Source: Rathayibacter tritici (GTDB lineage Bacteria > Actinomycetota > Actinomycetes > Actinomycetales > Microbacteriaceae). From it: a stretch of DNA of 61,586 nt. This document shows, in pieces, positions 7,191 to 58,215 of the stretch. Position 1 is the stretch's first letter. The number at the start of each line of letters is the position of its first letter. The stretch is from positions 1 to 61,586 of the forward strand of contig NZ_PSWS01000070.1 in assembly GCF_002932875.1 (NCBI RefSeq), in the 5' to 3' direction. The translations under genes and the position numbers were made by a program. The notes under the pieces are model-generated. The model searched no databases and had not been told where the DNA came from. It worked only from the letters and a program-made list of their open reading frames with translations.

Positions 7191-9716
7191 TCAGTCCAGT
7201 CGGCCTACTGCACTCACGCGCACGACGGCCGCACCCTGCTCGTCCGACTCCGCCAGATCGACCGTCGCGGAGATCCCCCAGTCATGGTCGCCCGCCGGGT
7301 CGTCGAGGATCTGCCGTACCCGCCACTGCGTCGGCTCCTCCGTGATGAGGAGCATCGCGGGTCCCCGCGCGTCAGGCCCAGTGCCGATGCGCTCGTGCTC
7401 GTCGTAGTAGTCGTCCAGCGCCGCACCCCACGCGTCGGCGTCGAATCCGGCGGCCGCATCCAGCTCGCCGAGCGCCTCGTGGTCGTCGAGCGCGGCGAGC
7501 GTCACCCGGCGGAACATTTCGTTGCGCACCAGCACGCGGAAGGCGCGGTGGTTGGCGGTGAGACGGCGCGGAGCGGGCGGCACGATCGACTGGTCCGCCG
7601 CGTGCAGCGCCGGGTTGACCAGCTCCTCCCACTCGTCCACCAGCGAGGAGTCGACCTGGCGCACCAGCTCGCCCAACCACTCGATCAGGTCGTGCAGCTC
7701 CTCGTTCTTCAGCTCGTCGGGGATGGTCTGCCGGGCCGCGCGGAACGCGTCGGACAGGTACCGCAGCACCAGTCCCTCCGAGCGCGAGAGCTTGTAGAAG
7801 GCGGTGTATTCGCCGAACGACATGGCCCGCTCGTACATGTCGCGCACGACTGACTTGGGCGAGAGTTCGAAGTCCTTCACCCAGGGCTGCGCGGCCGTGT
7901 AGGTCTCGAAGGTCGCCGCGAGCAGCTCCTCGAGCGGCTTGGGGTGCGTCACCGACTCGAGCAGCTCCATCCGCTCCTCGTACTCAATCCCCTCCGCCTT
8001 CATCGCCGCGACCGCCTCGCCGCGGGCTTGGAACTGCTGGGCGCCGAGGATCGGGCGCGGATCATCGAGCGTCGCCTCCAGCACCGAGATCACGTCGAGC
8101 GCGAAGGTGGGCGACTCGGGGTCGAGCACGTCGAACACGGCGAGCGCGAACGGCGAGAGCGGCTGGTTCAGCGCGAAGTTCGGCTGCAGGTCGACGGTCA
8201 AGCGGATGCGCATCGCGCCGTCCGCACCGACGCTCTGCTCGATGACGCCCGCCTCCCGCAGGGTGCGGTAGATGCCCAGCGCGCGGCGGGCGAGCTGCAA
8301 CTGGCGCTGCCACGGCTCGTGGTTGTCGAAGATCAAGGCGTGCACGTTCGCGTAGGCGTCGCCGCCGCGGGCGATCACGTTCAGCAGCATCGCCGAGGTG
8401 ATGGTCATGTGCGAGGTCAGCGTCTCGGGCTCCGCGTCGACGAGCTTGCGGAAGCTCGGCTCGCCCCAGCTGACGAAGCCCTGCGGCGCACGTTTGGCGA
8501 CCCACTTCCTCCGCTTCTTCGGGTCATCGCCCATCTTGTCGAGAGCCTTGCGGTTCTCGGACTCGTGCTCGGGCGCCTGCACCACGACCGTGCCCGCTGT
8601 GTCGTAGCCCGCGCGGCCGGCGCGGCCGGCGATCTGGTGGAACTCGCGGGCGGAGAGCTGGCGCAACCGGGTGCCGTCGTACTTGGTCAGGGCGGTGAGC
8701 AGCACCGTGCGGATGGGGACGTTGATGCCGACACCGAGTGTGTCCGTCCCGCAGATCACCCGCAGCATCCCCTGCTGCGCGAGCTGCTCGACCAGTCGGC
8801 GGTACTTCGGCAGCATGCCCGCGTGGTGCACGCCGATCCCGAGCCGGAGGAGGCGCGAGAGCGTTTTGCCGAAGGCGGTGGTGAAGCGGAAGCCGCCGAT
8901 CACCTCGGCGATCCGGTCGCGGTGCTCGCGAGTGGCGATGTTCGCGCTGGTGAGCGCCTGCGCGCGTTCGAGGGCCGCGGCCTGCGAGAAGTGCACGACG
9001 TAGACGGGCGACTGGTTCGTCGCGAGCAGCTCCTCGATGGAGTCGTGGATCGGCGCGATCTCGTAGAAGTAGTGCAGCGGCACCGGACGCTCGACGCCGG
9101 TGACCCGGGCGGTCTCGCGGCCGGTGCGGCGACTGAGATCGGCGGCGAGCGCCGTCACATCGCCCAGGGTCGCCGACATCAGCACGAATTGAACGTGCGG
9201 GAGGGTGAGCAGCGGCACCTGCCAGGCCCAGCCGCGCGCCGGATCCGCGTAGAAGTGGAACTCATCCATCACCACCTGGTCGACCGGAGTGTCCGCGCCG
9301 TGCCGGAGCGCGAGGTTGGCCAGGATCTCGGCCGTGCAGCAGATGATCGGTGCGTCAGCGTTGACCGAGGAGTCGCCGGTGACCATGCCGACGTTCGAGG
9401 CGCCGAAGACCTCGACCAGCGCGAAGAACTTCTCGGAGACGAGCGCCTTGATCGGCGCCGTGTAGAAGCTGCGGCGTCCGGAGGCGAGCGCAGCAGCGTG
9501 CGCGCCGATCGCGACCAGCGACTTCCCGGTGCCGGTAGGAGTGGAGAGGATGAGGTTCGAGCCGGAGGCGATCTCGAGCATCGACTCGTCCTGCGCCGGG
9601 TAGAGCGGCAACCCCCGCGACTCGGCCCACTCCGTGAAGGCCAGGTACACCTCGTCGTCGTCGACCCGCCCGTCCGCGTCGGGCGTCGGCATCCGGTCGA
9701 GCAGCGTCGAGGTCAT
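7191..9716 (-). CDS. DEAD/DEAH-box RNA helicase with C-terminal DUF3516
   Basis: A superfamily 2 helicase of 841 residues. The ATG at 9716 is chosen because GGGAGG lies just upstream on the minus strand; a longer reading would add a Gly/Ala-rich leader. Walker A is TPTGTGKS (59-66), motif II is MDEFHFY, motif III is LMSATLGD, and motif VI is HQIAGRAGRAGYD. The long C-terminal half is the actinobacterial DUF3516 domain. The catalytic core resembles Ski2/Mtr4-like RNA helicases, so a role in RNA processing or decay is likely but unproven. It is downstream of aztA on the same strand with a 61-bp gap. Confidence 0.9.
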   Translation of the reverse strand: MTSTLLDRMPTPDADGRVDDDEVYLAFTEWAESRGLPLYPAQDESMLEIASGSNLILSTPTGTGKSLVAIGAHAAALASGRRSFYTAPIKALVSEKFFALVEVFGASNVGMVTGDSSVNADAPIICCTAEILANLALRHGADTPVDQVVMDEFHFYADPARGWAWQVPLLTLPHVQFVLMSATLGDVTALAADLSRRTGRETARVTGVERPVPLHYFYEIAPIHDSIEELLATNQSPVYVVHFSQAAALERAQALTSANIATREHRDRIAEVIGGFRFTTAFGKTLSRLLRLGIGVHHAGMLPKYRRLVEQLAQQGMLRVICGTDTLGVGINVPIRTVLLTALTKYDGTRLRQLSAREFHQIAGRAGRAGYDTAGTVVVQAPEHESENRKALDKMGDDPKKRRKWVAKRAPQGFVSWGEPSFRKLVDAEPETLTSHMTITSAMLLNVIARGGDAYANVHALIFDNHEPWQRQLQLARRALGIYRTLREAGVIEQSVGADGAMRIRLTVDLQPNFALNQPLSPFALAVFDVLDPESPTFALDVISVLEATLDDPRPILGAQQFQARGEAVAAMKAEGIEYEERMELLESVTHPKPLEELLAATFETYTAAQPWVKDFELSPKSVVRDMYERAMSFGEYTAFYKLSRSEGLVLRYLSDAFRAARQTIPDELKNEELHDLIEWLGELVRQVDSSLVDEWEELVNPALHAADQSIVPPAPRRLTANHRAFRVLVRNEMFRRVTLAALDDHEALGELDAAAGFDADAWGAALDDYYDEHERIGTGPDARGPAMLLITEEPTQWRVRQILDDPAGDHDWGISATVDLAESDEQGAAVVRVSAVGRLD

Positions 9717-17080: not shown

Positions 17081-17213
17081 GCACGTGCTCCGGGGTCGGT
17101 GAGAATTCCGAACCGGCGGTGACAGTCCGCGAGCCACAGCCCCTCCCGAGGGGCGGTGGTTGACCTGGTGGAACTCCAGGACCGACGGTGAAAGTCCGGA
17201 GGAGAGGCAGCAC
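17081..17213 (+). ncRNA. FMN riboswitch (RFN element)
   Basis: The conserved blocks are present in order: CTCCGGGGTCGGTGAG, ATTCCGAACCGGCGGTGA, CAGTCCGCGAG, a variable arm (about 17136-17158), CCTGGTGGAACTCCAGG, ACCGACGGTGAAAGTCCGGA and GGAGAGGCAGCAC, with GTGCTCC and the 3' GGAGAGGCAGCAC forming the closing stem. Bound FMN represses the downstream riboflavin operon. The element lies 92 bp before the ribD start. Confidence 0.96.
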
Positions 17214-17220
17214 GAGCGTC

Positions 17221-38768: not shown

Positions 38769-39111
38769 GCTGAACCCCTTTCTCCCGCGCCAACGCCACT
38801 GGTCGTCGTAGCCGCCCAGCGAGAGGTGGCCGCCGACTCCTGCCTGTGACGCGACACTCCCGCCGCTCGCCGGGCCGGGGCTCCGCCCTGCCCGGCCACT
38901 CCCCGCACCGGGGCCCCGGCGGACCCTCCCGCTCCGCGCGACTCCCCCACTGCTGATCGCCGTGTCGCTGCCCATCTGTCCTGCTCCGTTCTGCCCCGCT
39001 CCATGCCCCCGTCCTCCGAGGATCGCGCACCAGTGCTCCCGCCGGGGCGGCTGTCGGCCGATCTGTGGAGCACAGCGGGATCCCGCCCCTGTGGAGGAGC
39101 CGTTGACCGCC
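38769..39111. other. Gene-free 343-bp gap inside the Tad locus
   Basis: The stretch is open in several frames, but the translations are Arg/Gly/Ala-rich and show no helix or pilin signature. Neither a hairpin terminator nor a clear promoter was found. In relatives this place can hold another pilus gene, so it may be a deletion scar. Confidence 0.5.
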
Positions 39112-40110
39112 TCACGCCGCGACCGAGAACGTCGAGAGCAGCACCGAGACGACCATCGGAGCCACCCCGAGCAGGAGGAACGCCGGCAGCACGCAGACCC
39201 CCAGCGGCAGCATCAGGGTCACACCGAGCCGAGCGGCGCGCTCCCGCGCCCCGGAGGACGCCCGAGCCCGCACCAGCGCCGCCTCGCTCCGCAGCAGACG
39301 GCCTGCCGGGACGCCCGCCGCCACCGACAGTGCGAGCACCGGGTCGGCGTCGGCCAGAACCCGCTCATCAGCGTCGAGGCCGCATTCGGCGAGCGACGCC
39401 AGCACCCGGGCGCGCGACGAACCGATCGATCCCCCGCCGGCCAGCGCGACCGCGAGGAGGTCGAGGGCGAGGCCGGGCGCCGGATCGTCGGGGAACGCCC
39501 GGTGCACGAGCCGCCGCGTCCAGGCGTGCGCGCCTGCCATCAGCCCGACGCCTCCGACCAGGCAGACCAGACCCGGCACTGTCCCGAGGAGCACGCCCAC
39601 CACGTCGAAGCCCAGCAGCCCACCCAGACCCAGTGCGGCGAGCGGCAGAGCGCCCACGACCCGCCCCGTCACGGCGGGGCCGGCCAGAGCCACGGCGATG
39701 TCCCGGCGCGCGCGGGCCAGCTCGCGCAGCGACTCCGCCAGCTCGCCGAGAGCGCTGGCGACCGGCGCGCCGGAGTCCGCGGCCACCCGCCACGCAGCGG
39801 CCAGCGCCGCCCACGCTGTCGCTTCACCGGCATCCGGTGCAGGGGCTTTCCACCGGGCGGGGCGCCGCCGCCGGCCGCCCCGCCGCGAGGCCGGGACCCC
39901 GCGCAGCAGCGCCTCGGTCACGTCGCCGCCGCGCGCGGCCTCCTCCGACACCGCCCGAAGGAGCCGCCGTCGCTGCGCGTCCCCGCGGTCCGCTCCCTCC
40001 GCAGCCGCGAGGTACGCAAGTGCCGACGCCGGAGCAACTCCCGCCGCGAGGAGCACAGCCAGCCGGTGCACCACAGCTGCGACCTCGTCCAGGCCGTCAC
40101 GGCCTCTCAC
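39112..40110 (-). CDS. Type II secretion F-type protein, TadB/TadC-like
   Basis: An inner-membrane platform protein of 332 residues from GTG 40110 (overlapping the tadA stop as GTGA). The first half (about 1-190) has one F-domain with two hydrophobic segments near 120-165; the second half repeats the layout with a final pair of helices (VTLMLPLGVCVLPAFLLLGV). Separate TadB and TadC genes are absent, so this single protein probably fuses both. An Arg-rich insert (SRRGGRRRRPARWK) sits in the first half. Confidence 0.8.
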   Translation of the reverse strand: MRGRDGLDEVAAVVHRLAVLLAAGVAPASALAYLAAAEGADRGDAQRRRLLRAVSEEAARGGDVTEALLRGVPASRRGGRRRRPARWKAPAPDAGEATAWAALAAAWRVAADSGAPVASALGELAESLRELARARRDIAVALAGPAVTGRVVGALPLAALGLGGLLGFDVVGVLLGTVPGLVCLVGGVGLMAGAHAWTRRLVHRAFPDDPAPGLALDLLAVALAGGGSIGSSRARVLASLAECGLDADERVLADADPVLALSVAAGVPAGRLLRSEAALVRARASSGARERAARLGVTLMLPLGVCVLPAFLLLGVAPMVVSVLLSTFSVAA

Positions 40111-41123
40111 CCGCCCGACCTCGATGAGCTCGGCAGCGTCCCCCGCTCGACCCGCAGCCGCCCGTCGCCATCGAGCGCGAACGTCCCGGACGCCGCGAGC
40201 CGCCGCCGCCCGCCGCGTCGTTCGAGGTGCAGCACCAGGTCGATCGCGCTGACCGTCTGTCGGGCGGTCGCCTCGGGCCCCAGACCCGCGAGGACCCCGA
40301 GCGCTTCGAGCCGCGCGGGCACGTCCTCGAGCGAGTTCGCGTGCAGGGTGCCCGCGCCTCCGTCGTGCCCGGTGTTCAGCGCGGACAACAGCTCGCGCAG
40401 CTCCCCGCCGCGGCACTCCCCGAGGACCAGACGGTCGGGTCGCATCCGCAGCGCCTCCCGCACGAGCCGATCCAGGCCGATGGCTCCGGCGCCCTCGAGA
40501 TTCGGCTGCCGCGCCTCGAGCGACACGACGTGCGGGTGCGCCGGCCGGAGCTCGCCGACGTCCTCGATCGCCACGATCCGCTCGGTGGGCGACGCGCAGC
40601 CGAGCAGCGCACCGAGCACGGTCGTCTTCCCTGATCCGCCCGCCCCCGAGATCAGCAGGTTCCAGCGCTCGCGGACCGCGCGGCGCAGCAGCCGGACCCC
40701 GTCCTCGTCCAGCATCCCCGCCGCCCGCAGCTCCGCGAGCGTCCAGGAGTCGGCCCGCGGGACCCGCACCGAGACCAGCGCTCCCCCGGTCGCCACCGGC
40801 GGCAGCACGACGTGCACCCGCACACCGTGCCGCAGCCGGACATCGACGCAGGGGCTTGCTTCATCGACGTGCCGCCCGCCGGCCGCGACCAGCGCCACCG
40901 CGAGCCGCCGCGCTCCTGGTGCGTCCAGCGTCCACTCCGGCACTCGCTCCGCACCATTGCCGCGGTCGACCCACAGGCCCGCGCCACCGTTCACGAAGAG
41001 GTCGGTCACTGCGGGATCGGCGGCGTGCGGGGCGAGCAGCCCGAGGGCGGCGGCGGCCGGGCGTACCGGCGTCGAATCACGGCGGTGCTCGGGTGGGACG
41101 AGGGGGACGAAGTCAGGGCTCAT
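40107..41123 (-). CDS. tadA: Tad pilus assembly ATPase (TadA/CpaF)
   Basis: A secretion ATPase of 338 residues. Walker A is SGAGGSGKTT, the Asp box IVAIEDVGELRP, Walker B MRPDRLVLGECRGGE and the His box TGHDGGAGTLHANS. It powers assembly of Flp-type pili. ATG 41123 gives a normal N-terminus; longer readings run into the acs region antisense. It heads the Tad operon and lies 134 bp downstream of the 6C RNA terminator on the same strand. Confidence 0.9.
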   Translation of the reverse strand: MSPDFVPLVPPEHRRDSTPVRPAAAALGLLAPHAADPAVTDLFVNGGAGLWVDRGNGAERVPEWTLDAPGARRLAVALVAAGGRHVDEASPCVDVRLRHGVRVHVVLPPVATGGALVSVRVPRADSWTLAELRAAGMLDEDGVRLLRRAVRERWNLLISGAGGSGKTTVLGALLGCASPTERIVAIEDVGELRPAHPHVVSLEARQPNLEGAGAIGLDRLVREALRMRPDRLVLGECRGGELRELLSALNTGHDGGAGTLHANSLEDVPARLEALGVLAGLGPEATARQTVSAIDLVLHLERRGGRRRLAASGTFALDGDGRLRVERGTLPSSSRSGG

Positions 41124-41249
41124 CCCCGCACGGTAGAAGCCGCCGCCGCCCGTCAGGGCGTCGAGGCAGTCGATCGGAAGAGAGACGCGCTCGTCCGGAC
41201 CTGTGGAGGAGGCATCACGAGCCGCGCTCGCTGCGCGGAGGCCCCTCGG

Positions 41250-41411
41250 ACGAGGAAACGCCCCCGCGAGCCGGGCTCGAGCGGGGGCGTTCGTCCACCG
41301 TGATCCGGCGGAAAGAAGGGGGCGGCACCCATTGGGGGGAACAGGTGCCGCCTCGGCGGCGCTGGATTGGGGGGAATCGCTTGCGCCGCTGGGCCGAAGT
41401 TCATTCGGCCG
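41250..41411 (-). ncRNA. 6C RNA (C-rich-loop small RNA)
   Basis: On the minus strand two strong hairpins each show an exact CCCCCC loop: GCGGCGC...GATT-CCCCCC-AATC...GCGCCGC (41389-41356) and GGCGGCACC-TGTT-CCCCCC-AATG-GGTGCCGCC (41352-41321). A third hairpin, AACGCCCCCGC/GCGGGGGCGTT (41291-41257), followed by TCCTCG, is the terminator. A 5' hairpin (GGCCGAA/TTCGGCC) begins the transcript. This is the defining architecture of the 6C RNA class of actinobacteria. C-rich loops are thought to pair with G-rich ribosome-binding sites. It lies upstream of tadA on the same strand, matching the mycobacterial location I recall. Ends are estimated. Confidence 0.9.
41257..41291 (-). terminator. Terminator of the 6C RNA
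   Basis: A perfect 11-bp stem (AACGCCCCCGC/GCGGGGGCGTT) with inner GAGC/GCTC pairing. On the minus strand it is followed by TTTCCTCG, giving a short U-run. Confidence 0.85.
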
Positions 41412-41417
41412 TATGTA

Positions 41418-41446
41418 ACTGTAGGGGACGGACCGCGATTCGCCAA
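41418..41446 (-). promoter_or_regulatory. Promoter of the 6C RNA
   Basis: On the minus strand TTGGCG (41446-41441) and TACAGT (41423-41418) are separated by 17 bases, giving a predicted start near 41411, just before the 5' hairpin of the RNA. Confidence 0.65.
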
Positions 41447-41600: not shown

Positions 41601-43595
<1,995 letters not shown>

Positions 43596-47173: not shown

Positions 47174-47689
47174 GTGACTCGGTCGCTCAGCCGCCTCACC
47201 CTCGCCATCGGCGTGCCCTACCTGATCGCACTCGCGATGATCGCCTTCTGGCCGACGCCCGTCGATAGCGGGATGAGAGGCGACCTCGGCCGAGTGGGCT
47301 CGTGGTTCTCCCGGCACCATCTGCCCCGGGTCGACTACGCCTTCCTCGAGGCCAGCGCCAACATCGCCCTGTTCGTCCCCCTCGGCCTGCTCCTCGCGCT
47401 CAACCTGCGCCCCCGGTCGGCGTGGATCGCGGTCGTCGTCGGCGCCCTGGTGAGCTCGCTGATCGAGACCGGACAGCTGCTCTTCCTCTCGTCCCGCTTC
47501 GCAAGCCTGCAGGACGTGGTGATGAACACCTCGGGAGCCCTGCTCGGTGCTCTGGCCGGGGTTCTGCTGCGGATCATCGTCCATGCGCAGCGACGCCGGA
47601 GGGCTGCCGAGCGAGACGACGCTTTCGCGCACATCCCCCTCCGCGGCACCTCCGGCGTTGTGGCGGATCAGCCGAGCCGCGTGCTCTGA
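47174..47689 (+). CDS. VanZ family membrane protein
   Basis: A protein of 171 residues from GTG 47174 with GAGAGGA five bases upstream. Four membrane segments match the VanZ family: a first helix ending in FWPTPVD, then NIALFVPLGLLLAL, LVSSLIETGQLLF and the conserved DVVMNTSGALLGALAG. VanZ homologues can lower teicoplanin sensitivity, but most such chromosomal copies have unknown function. The C-terminal 35 residues are hydrophilic. Confidence 0.87.
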   Translation: MTRSLSRLTLAIGVPYLIALAMIAFWPTPVDSGMRGDLGRVGSWFSRHHLPRVDYAFLEASANIALFVPLGLLLALNLRPRSAWIAVVVGALVSSLIETGQLLFLSSRFASLQDVVMNTSGALLGALAGVLLRIIVHAQRRRRAAERDDAFAHIPLRGTSGVVADQPSRVL

Positions 47690-56727: not shown

Positions 56728-58215
56728 TCAGACCGAGGCGGAGAGCTCCAGCGTCTCGGCGGTCGCGCTGACCGTCCGCTCGGCCTTCTCGGGCGCATCG
56801 TTGAGCGTCGAGCCGTAACTCGGCACCAGTGCGCGGATGCGCGGCTCCCAGGCCTTCATCCGATCGGGGAAGCACTTCTGCACGATGTCGAGCATGATCG
56901 GCACGGCGGTCGACGCTCCGGGCGAAGCACCGAGCAGCCCGGCGATCGTGCCGTCCCCCCCGGTGATGACCTCGGTGCCGAACTGCAGCACTCCGCCCTT
57001 CTTCTCGTCTTTCTTCATCACTTGGACGCGCTGGCCGGCCGTGATCAGGTACCAGTCCTCATCGCGGGCGGTCGGCAGGAATTCGCGCAGGGCCTTCATC
57101 TTCTTGCCGCGGCCGGCGAGCACCTCGCCGATCAGGTACTTCATCAGGTCGAGGTTGTCGCGGGCAACCGCGAGCATCGGGACGATGTTGTGCGGCCGGA
57201 TCGACAGCGGCAGGTCGAGCCACGAGCCGCGCTTGAGGAACTTGGGCGTGAATCCGGCGTACGGACCGAACAGGAGCGACGACTCGCCGTCGACGACGCG
57301 CGCGTCCAGATGGGGCACTGACATCGGGGGCGCGCCGACGGCCGCCTTGCCGTAGACCTTGGCTGTGTGCCGGGCGACCAGCTCCGGGTTGTCGGTGCGG
57401 AGGAACTGCCCGGAGATGGGGAAGCCGCCGAAGCCCTTGATCTCGGGGATGCCGGACTTTTGCAACAGATGCAGCGCGCCCCCGCCGGCGCCGACGAAGA
57501 CGAAGCGGGCGGTCACTCGCTGGGGCGTCCCGCCAACGAGCTGCTTGAGATCGAGGCGCCAGGTGCCGTCCTTCTGGCGGGTGATGTCGGTGACCTCGCG
57601 ACCAGTGTCGAGCGTGCCGCCGTGGGCGACGACGTAATCGAACAGCTGGTGCGTCAGCGAGCCGAAGTCGACATCGGTTCCGGCCGGCATGCGGGTCGCG
57701 GCGTAGGGGCCGCCGCCCGCCGGCCGCTGCTCCATCAGCAGGGGCGCCCACTCGTGGATCGTCGTGATGTTCTCGGTGAACTCGATGCCGGCGAACAGCG
57801 GCTGGTCTTTGAGGGCCTCGTAGCGTTTGCGGAGGTACTCGACATTGGCTTCGCCGTGCACGAAGGTCATGTGCGGCGCCGGGTTGATGAAGCTGGACGG
57901 CTCACGGATGTCGCCGGACTCGACCAGGCTCGACCAGAACTGGCGCGAAATCTGGAACTGCTCGTTGATCTGAATGGCCTTCGCCGGGTCCACGGAGCCG
58001 TCGGCCGCCTCGGGCATGTAGTTGAGCTCGCAGAGAGCGGCGTGACCGGTGCCCGCGTTGTTCCACGGGTTCGACGATTCCTGCGCGACGTCGCCGAGGC
58101 GCTCGTAGGCGGCGATCGTCCAGTCGGGCTGCAGCTGGGTGATCAGGGCGCCCAGAGTGGCGCTCATGATGCCCCCACCGATGAGGGCGACGTCGACCGG
58201 TTCCGAGGAGTTCAC
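56728..58215 (-). CDS. mqo: Malate:quinone oxidoreductase
   Basis: FAD-dependent peripheral membrane enzyme of about 495 residues that oxidises malate to oxaloacetate and passes electrons to quinone. The FAD motif is VALIGGGIMSATLGALI, with NPWNNAGTGHAALCELNY, LLFGPYAGFTPKFLK and the end GASPGASTAVPIMLDIV. GTG 58215 is used; the ribosome-binding site is weak, and an ATG 23 codons upstream is possible. It is a typical TCA-cycle enzyme in actinobacteria. Confidence 0.93.
   Translation of the reverse strand: MNSSEPVDVALIGGGIMSATLGALITQLQPDWTIAAYERLGDVAQESSNPWNNAGTGHAALCELNYMPEAADGSVDPAKAIQINEQFQISRQFWSSLVESGDIREPSSFINPAPHMTFVHGEANVEYLRKRYEALKDQPLFAGIEFTENITTIHEWAPLLMEQRPAGGGPYAATRMPAGTDVDFGSLTHQLFDYVVAHGGTLDTGREVTDITRQKDGTWRLDLKQLVGGTPQRVTARFVFVGAGGGALHLLQKSGIPEIKGFGGFPISGQFLRTDNPELVARHTAKVYGKAAVGAPPMSVPHLDARVVDGESSLLFGPYAGFTPKFLKRGSWLDLPLSIRPHNIVPMLAVARDNLDLMKYLIGEVLAGRGKKMKALREFLPTARDEDWYLITAGQRVQVMKKDEKKGGVLQFGTEVITGGDGTIAGLLGASPGASTAVPIMLDIVQKCFPDRMKAWEPRIRALVPSYGSTLNDAPEKAERTVSATAETLELSASV

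What the first reader, a model, noticed from the sequence alone, without database searches (positions are those of the whole stretch)
41250..41446. 6C small RNA with two exact CCCCCC loops at the head of the Tad locus
The minus strand encodes two stem-loops with six-C loops closed by GATT/AATC-type pairs, a promoter with 17-bp spacing and a strong terminator. This matches the 6C RNA class. I recall the mycobacterial 6C/B11 RNA lying near Rv3660c, also beside the tad genes, so this synteny may be ancient and functional. Direct C-loop pairing with G-rich ribosome-binding sites, many of which (GGAGG, GGGG) occur in this window, is a testable idea.
Basis: partly seen in the sequence, partly recalled or inferred. 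Interest (0 to 1): 0.75.

Follow-up and report, generated by a model that had tools for sequence, protein, structure and literature searches.

The report
6C small RNA, sub-threshold family variant
This stretch encodes a small RNA of the 6C (B11) kind already studied in mycobacteria; it carries two loops of six cytosines that probably switch off other genes by pairing with their start regions, and it belongs to a bacterial family in which the standard model mostly scores it below its cut-off.

Summary
On the minus strand (about 41410 to 41311) lies a predicted ~100-nt RNA gene: a promoter (TTGGCG-17-TACAGT), a 5' hairpin and two hairpins with exact CCCCCC loops, the second terminator-like. Rfam's 6C model finds it at 39.1 bits, below its cut-off of 47. 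That is usual in Microbacteriaceae: 28 of 40 genomes match at E<=0.1, 1 of 40 over the cut-off. A model built from loci gathered through tadA finds 32 of 40 and agrees with a Rfam place in all 28. Covariation supports both C-loop hairpins.

Synteny is real: tadA lies downstream on the same strand in 39 of 40 class-wide 6C loci; in Microbacteriaceae acs is divergent and close in 69 of 70. tadA seems to have its own near-leaderless promoter, so 6C is unlikely to be a tad leader.

Best mechanism: a trans-acting repressor pairing its C loops with G-runs at ribosome-binding sites, as shown for mycobacterial B11. New lead: the pilM start has five or more G in 12 of 28 Microbacteriaceae loci (about 3% of other ORFs), but in 0 of 45 class-wide, and R. 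iranicus, the nearest relative found, has no pilM hit. The window holds no convincing target.

The parts
41441..41446 (-). -35 element TTGGCG of the 6C promoter
   Evidence: sequence; conserved placement in 62 of 74 loci against 15 of 7300 random positions
41418..41423 (-). -10 element TACAGT, 17 nt from the -35
41311..41410 (-). predicted 6C transcript, ~100 nt; both ends inferred, not measured
   Evidence: spacing from the -10 and T-rich tract after hairpin 2; R2 model match 41313-41394 at 95.8 bits, the window being one of its training sequences; Rfam 6C match 41317-41390 at 39.1 bits
41392..41410 (-). 5' hairpin P0 (GGCCGAA/UUCGGCC), outside the Rfam model
   Evidence: support moderate
41356..41389 (-). 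hairpin P1 with loop UUCCCCCCAA; six C at 41369-41374
   Evidence: covariation; fold
41321..41352 (-). hairpin P2 with loop UUCCCCCCAA; six C at 41334-41339; terminator-like
41256..41290 (-). second GC-rich hairpin followed by three T; the start of a corresponding sequence is seen in L001 and L002 (R. iranicus, R. tanaceti), not in L003-L006, as far as the 100 nt printed reach
   Evidence: sequence; fold; not reported by the terminator scan
41201..41210 (-). box TCCTCCACAG upstream of tadA
41130..41135 (-). -10-like TACCGT six nt before the tadA ATG (near-leaderless promoter, inferred)
   Evidence: sequence; same layout in Rathayibacter loci and a few others among 24 printed (by eye)
40107..41123 (-). 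tadA (CpaF-type ATPase), first gene of the Tad locus
   Evidence: Pfam T2SSE E 7.4e-42
41601..43595 (+). acs, acetyl-CoA synthetase, divergent from 6C
   Evidence: Pfam ACAS_N and AMP-binding for 41604-43595; start by eye; synteny

Best explanation
A 6C/B11-type small RNA gene. It is transcribed from its own sigma-A-type promoter, divergently from acs, as a ~100-nt RNA of three hairpins, and ends at or shortly after the second C-loop hairpin. The two exposed UUCCCCCCAA loops pair with G-runs at ribosome-binding sites of distant mRNAs, block translation and promote decay. Shown here by computation: structure, covariation, promoter conservation, homology, synteny. Inferred from mycobacterial B11: the pairing mechanism. 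Not known: the targets in this organism, and whether the RNA is made.
For: Rfam 6C match over the full model at E 8.7e-4 in a 411-nt search. Covariation: A1 13 of 23 pairs and A2 13 of 24 pairs with changes on both sides, 96.5% and 93.1% of cells paired, slid controls 30-55% (the structures were derived from these sequences, which favours them over the slid versions). Rfam and a model gathered without Rfam meet at the same place in 28 of 28 Microbacteriaceae genomes (compared by eye; in 27 it is Rfam's best place, in G330 its second). Promoter in 62 of 74 loci. The three-hairpin layout with a C-rich loop in the terminator is that probed for M. marinum B11 (PMC12395582, passages). Either C loop suffices to repress a target with a six-G tract in M. 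abscessus (PMC10470900, passages). Loop-to-pilM duplexes of -17.3 to -17.5 kcal/mol for three stretches picked for their G-runs, against -10.4 for the window's tadA start. The distance from 6C to tadA grows to 1.9, 4.1, 4.2 and about 6.4 kb in L023, L016, L064 and Plantibacter while 6C stays divergent from acs, as expected of an RNA that does not depend on tad.
Against: No transcript data. Score below Rfam's cut-off. No convincing target in the window. The pilM signal is absent class-wide (0 of 45 assigned starts), and R. iranicus has no pilM hit. In M. marinum only the terminator loop mattered, so equal roles of the two loops are not assured. Mutation of scr3558 in S. coelicolor is said to have had no effect (personal communication cited in PMC8539372).
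Confidence: 0.78

Rival explanations
1. A cis-acting leader or attenuator of the tad operon: read-through at the C-loop terminators would set tad expression.
For: Rfam files 6C as Cis-reg; tadA is downstream on the same strand in 39 of 40 class-wide loci and, with Plantibacter counted, in 71 of 80 tadA loci of the family, which were gathered through tadA.
Against: Own promoter and terminator-like end; -10-like TANNNT directly before the tadA ATG in Rathayibacter and a few relatives, suggesting a separate near-leaderless mRNA (by eye); distance to tadA runs from about 0.2 kb to 6.4 kb.
Confidence: 0.1
2. A protein-binding sponge or scaffold: the C-rich loops bind a protein rather than, or as well as, mRNA.
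For: In most sequences of A1 both loops keep the letters UUCCCCCCAA while stem 1 changes; the authors of PMC12395582 suggest a conserved core function other than base pairing, possibly with proteins.
Against: No binding protein was looked for here; base pairing is supported by compensatory mutation in M. marinum; Microbacterium-type elements have other letters around the C run.
Confidence: 0.07
3. Two terminator-like hairpins with C runs that arose by chance in GC-rich DNA, with no sRNA.
For: Near-matches to the loop string are at chance level in the window.
Against: Found in 70 of 80 tadA loci with covariation and a conserved promoter.
Confidence: 0.02

Closest known systems
6C RNA, Rfam RF01066
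   Same: Two adjacent hairpins with loops of six C, size, place upstream of tad genes, full-length model match
   Different: 39.1 bits against a gathering score of 47; 1 of 40 Microbacteriaceae genomes over the cut-off; UUCCCCCCAA in both loops of the window's element; 5' hairpin not in the model
Mycobacterial sRNA B11 (M. marinum, M. abscessus)
   Same: Three stem-loops, two C-rich, the last one a terminator; sigma-A-type -10; 93 nt; Rv3660-Rv3661 intergenic region (PMC12395582, passages). That Rv3660c belongs to a tad-like cluster is recalled
   Different: Nine C in loop 3 of M. marinum; the targets named there (lipooligosaccharide, ESX genes) were not looked for here; [quoted passage not shown]
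scr3558 of Streptomyces coelicolor and cgb_03605 of Corynebacterium glutamicum
   Same: 6C RNAs with verified expression; C. glutamicum 6C is ~100 nt with a 27-nt 5' extension over the Rfam prediction (PMC8539372, PMC4046766, passages)
   Different: C. glutamicum has two runs of eight C; mutation of scr3558 is reported without effect on physiology (personal communication in PMC8539372)
Scr3202 and CcsR1 (Rfam)
   Same: C-rich loops; weak hits at 20.4 and 19.8 bits
   Different: Far below their cut-offs of 52 and 65.3

Membership tests
6C RNA (RF01066) | Two neighbouring hairpins, each with about six C in the loop | tested here: met
6C RNA (RF01066) | Covariance-model score at or above the gathering score (47 bits) | tested here: not met
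   39.1 bits; no match at gathering in the window. Formally outside Rfam's family; treated here as a homologous variant
6C RNA (RF01066) | Stems supported by compensatory change among relatives | tested here: met
6C RNA (RF01066) | Same genomic place as accepted 6C RNAs (upstream of tad genes, same strand) | tested here: met
   39 of 40 class-wide loci, picked by hand from the 76 best-scoring matches, all over the cut-off; window. The 80 Microbacteriaceae loci were found through tadA, so tad linkage there is partly by design
6C RNA (RF01066) | Found in Actinobacteria | tested here: met
   nearest relatives Rathayibacter, tadA 90% identical
B11-type trans-acting sRNA | Separate transcript with own promoter and terminator | not testable with these tools
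   promoter and terminator predicted; no RNA data
B11-type trans-acting sRNA | Represses mRNAs by C-loop pairing at G-runs near the ribosome-binding site | tested here: inconclusive
   pilM enrichment in the family, absent class-wide; no direct test

The most novel reading that the evidence does not exclude
In Microbacteriaceae 6C is a carbon-status switch on surface pili: it is transcribed head to head with acs under shared, lineage-specific operators, and represses type IV pilus assembly through a G-run in the pilM ribosome-binding site, while its old place beside the Tad pilus genes reflects the same pilus-related role.
Probability: 0.15. Interest if true: 0.65.

Novelty: new variant of a known kind. 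Interest (0 to 1): 0.38.

Why it matters
Annotation that relies on Rfam's cut-off would miss 6C in nearly all of the Microbacteriaceae genomes sampled (1 of 40 over the cut-off, 32 of 40 with the family model). The class-wide synteny with tadA, the tight acs pairing in this family and the pilM lead give concrete starting points for the question raised in PMC12395582 of why 6C/B11 is kept while its known targets differ between species.

Tried and rejected
Rejected: cis-leader of tad as the main reading (see rivals). Rejected as targets in the window, all three calls with five or more G before the start: the DEAD/DUF3516 helicase gene at 9716(-), where the six G abut the ATG, where a leaderless promoter spacer would be (inference); mqo at 58167(-), where the called start is inside the reading frame and the G-run encodes the glycines of the FAD-binding motif (motif recalled); a short ORF of doubtful coding at 47634(-), where the run abuts the ATG. 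Rejected: PafBC/RecA-NDp control, compared by eye from recall only, no clear match.

Target search: GGGGGGAAN{2,8}ATG in 10 genomes gave 31 sites (4 for the pattern read backwards); 30 were held as loci and 17 of these start coding-like ORFs; the one pair of orthologues is pilM in G335 and G320 (places agree). The idea thus came from data that overlap the test: the G335 gene is among the 28. Without it the count is 11 of 27. The 12 of 28 uses starts fixed by the conserved N-terminus, the background a cruder start caller; with one caller pilM is 7 of 17 against 14 of 418 others. The binomial P values printed rest on a crude background (215 ORFs, none with six G) and on related genomes and are not used. 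Class-wide: 72 of 296 genomes had a pilM hit; 70 starts were examined (two truncated hits left out), 45 assigned, 25 unassigned, none of the 45 with five or more G, in 25 genomes with 6C and 20 without. At least G199 of these, and by its R2 hit G208, are of this family. That start finder accepts GTG and TTG and some of its starts look doubtful, so this negative is soft. It also means that pilM G-runs do not follow 6C presence class-wide.

Box TCCTCC[AC]CAG: in R. iranicus it also precedes genes that look like hrcA, dus, ppk and tyrA (names recalled from the translations, no family search), and it is only 1.7 times as common there as the same pattern read backwards (48 against 29; the other three genomes 23/12, 25/7, 32/15). 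No copy was found between 6C and tadA in the 40 class-wide loci. So it is not specific to competence and not class-wide.

Mistakes mended: one search missed reverse-strand loci, redone. The automatic pick in L063 was wrong and replaced. L030, L033 and L042 were dropped after R2 did not support them; they are still in the 74 and the 73. The TopA query was in a wrong frame and its column is not used. One of five duplexes was taken at a wrong place and discarded. Plantibacter was first read as 6C without tad nearby; one search corrected this.

Full report
What is there. The minus strand between acs and tadA carries a promoter of the form TTGGCG-17-TACAGT, a short 5' hairpin, and two hairpins whose loops are exactly CCCCCC. 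The fold is far more stable than shuffles (z -5.9). Next to it lie tadA (T2SSE), a T2SSF protein, a DUF4244 protein, a TadE-like protein and topA on the same strand, and on the other side acs on the plus strand and then a RidA-like gene. The nearest relatives found are Rathayibacter (tadA 90% identical to R. iranicus); no whole genome is held for the window.

Is it 6C? Rfam's 6C model matches the whole element at 39.1 bits, E 8.7e-4 in a search of 411 bases, and does not reach the gathering score of 47. This is a family matter: of 40 Microbacteriaceae genomes 28 match at E<=0.1 and 1 passes the cut-off, while in a class-wide sample 162 of 296 match and 111 pass. I gathered loci independently of Rfam, through tadA (best 80 kept of 501 relatives), and built model R2 from 51 elements, the window and 50 loci. 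R2 finds 32 of the same 40 genomes at E<=0.01, one place each; three of these are marginal (E 0.0017 to 0.0044) and R2's E-values are rough. In all 28 genomes with a Rfam match the R2 place overlaps one, in 27 the best one (by eye). R2 is narrow: 12 of 296 genomes class-wide. Some of the 40 genomes may be among those used to build R2, so its reach within the family is partly by construction; the agreement with Rfam is not.

Conservation. Of the 80 tadA loci, 70 hold the element on the tadA strand: 50 are in R2, 20 more were found by R2 among the other 30. One of these, L031, is weak (E 0.007). In 67 it lies within 1.5 kb of the tadA match, in L023 at about 1.9 kb and in L016 and L064 at 4.1 and 4.2 kb. 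Ten loci gave no hit: L014 (locus cut 240 nt upstream), L019, L025, L030, L033, L042, L062, L065, L075, L080. Six of these genomes were searched whole (L019, L025, L030, L062, L075, L080); only Plantibacter (L062) has a hit, beside acs and about 6.4 kb upstream of tadA on the same strand, just outside the locus. Covariation: 13 of 23 pairs (36 sequences) and 13 of 24 (51 sequences) change on both sides, 0 or 1 of 500 shuffles as good on each measure, slid controls clearly lower; related sequences inflate such shuffles. A promoter of the same form sits at the same distance in 62 of 74 loci, against 15 of 7300 random positions. The 5' hairpin: per-locus shuffle p is 0.05 or less in about 40% of 74 loci, median 0.07, and weak in Microbacterium; a loose test is passed by 71 of 71 loci, 54% of shuffled segments and 84% of random genomic segments. 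Its support is moderate.

Synteny. From the 76 best class-wide matches, all over the cut-off, I picked 40 by hand and took up to 14 kb around each: tadA is downstream on the same strand in 39 and acs divergent upstream in 24. In Microbacteriaceae acs is divergent in 69 of 70, its aligned part beginning 140 to 334 nt from loop 1; the exception is L031. These loci were found through tadA, not acs, so that figure is not by design, though the three share a neighbourhood. In R. iranicus and several relatives a TANNNT hexamer lies about six nt before the tadA ATG, the layout of a leaderless mRNA (24 loci printed, judged by eye), which argues against 6C being the tad leader.

How it works. In M. marinum B11 has three stem-loops, and the C-rich loop of its terminator pairs with G tracts near ribosome-binding sites, supported by compensatory mutation (PMC12395582, passages). 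In M. abscessus either C loop represses a target with a six-G tract (PMC10470900, passages). The present element has the same layout and exposed loops. I infer the same mode of action. Other reported contexts: 6C rises about two-fold with mitomycin C in C. glutamicum (cited in PMC6789036) and was linked there to GlxR (cited in PMC4046766).

Targets. Loop-complement start sites in 10 Microbacteriaceae genomes pointed to pilM. pilM is found in 42 of 80 genomes of the family, not in R. iranicus. Among 30 pilM loci 28 starts were assigned; 12 have a G-run of five or more and 6 of six or more in the 20 nt before the ATG. With one generic caller: pilM 7 of 17; other ORFs in the same loci 1 of 28, tad loci 11 of 325, comEA loci 0 of 21, box loci 2 of 44. 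Class-wide 0 of 45 assigned pilM starts have five or more, with or without 6C in the genome. So pilM is at best a target acquired in this family, and not one for the window's organism if it resembles R. iranicus. In the window three ORF calls of 38 have five or more G before the start, and none convinces.

Known or new. The kind, its mechanism and several of its places are known. I saw no paper on 6C in Microbacteriaceae in the searches (one paper with all three terms, not opened; 10 of 256 listed, none with the term 6C RNA), and none on 6C with tad in the 15 of 480 listed. The library holds open-licence papers only; Mai 2019, Pahlke 2016 and a 2007 paper recalled as the first 6C description were not held. 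New here as far as those searches go: the family-wide shortfall against the Rfam cut-off, the class-wide tadA count, the acs pairing, and the pilM lead.

Noticed in passing
window 41201-41210(-) and 39089-39098(-); L001-L080: Box TCCTCCNCAG: 45 copies in 951,534 nt of tad loci; 33 of 80 loci have one within 500 nt upstream of the tadA match, nine more copies lie near +1900 to +2260, in the window's case before the DUF4244 gene, and three elsewhere; also upstream of comEA in 3 of 30 loci and as a tandem pair before a yraN-like gene (by eye) in two genomes. In R. iranicus it also precedes other genes and is only 1.7 times its backward control; absent between 6C and tadA in 40 class-wide loci.
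   Followed up: partly
L008, L010, L013, L015 and others, about 100 nt upstream of loop 1: Palindrome TGTCC-N10-GGACA or a near variant just upstream of the 6C -35 in 19 of 73 loci (Cryobacterium, Agromyces, Leifsonia). The exact ends occur 16 times in 951,534 nt, as many as at these promoters. Not in the window by eye.
   Followed up: partly
L011, L054, L060, L061, L068, L070, L072, L073, L077, L079: GATATAT[CG] upstream of the 6C promoter in 10 loci, nine of them Microbacterium; GATATATC occurs 8 times in all 80 loci.
   Followed up: no
L385 and L062 (Plantibacter): 6C beside acs but about 6.4 kb from tadA, with other DNA in between; similar gaps of 4.1-4.2 kb in L016 and L064.
   Followed up: partly
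L030, L033, L042 (Pseudoclavibacter): Hairpin pairs with C7 and C5 runs upstream of tadA that R2 does not recognise; possible strongly diverged 6C.
   Followed up: no
L232 (genome G338): A prepilin-like gene (by eye) also starts behind GGGGGGAA; with pilM this points at type IV pili, but it is one case.
   Followed up: no
window 17082-17216(+): FMN riboswitch, 82.8 bits, ordinary.
   Followed up: no
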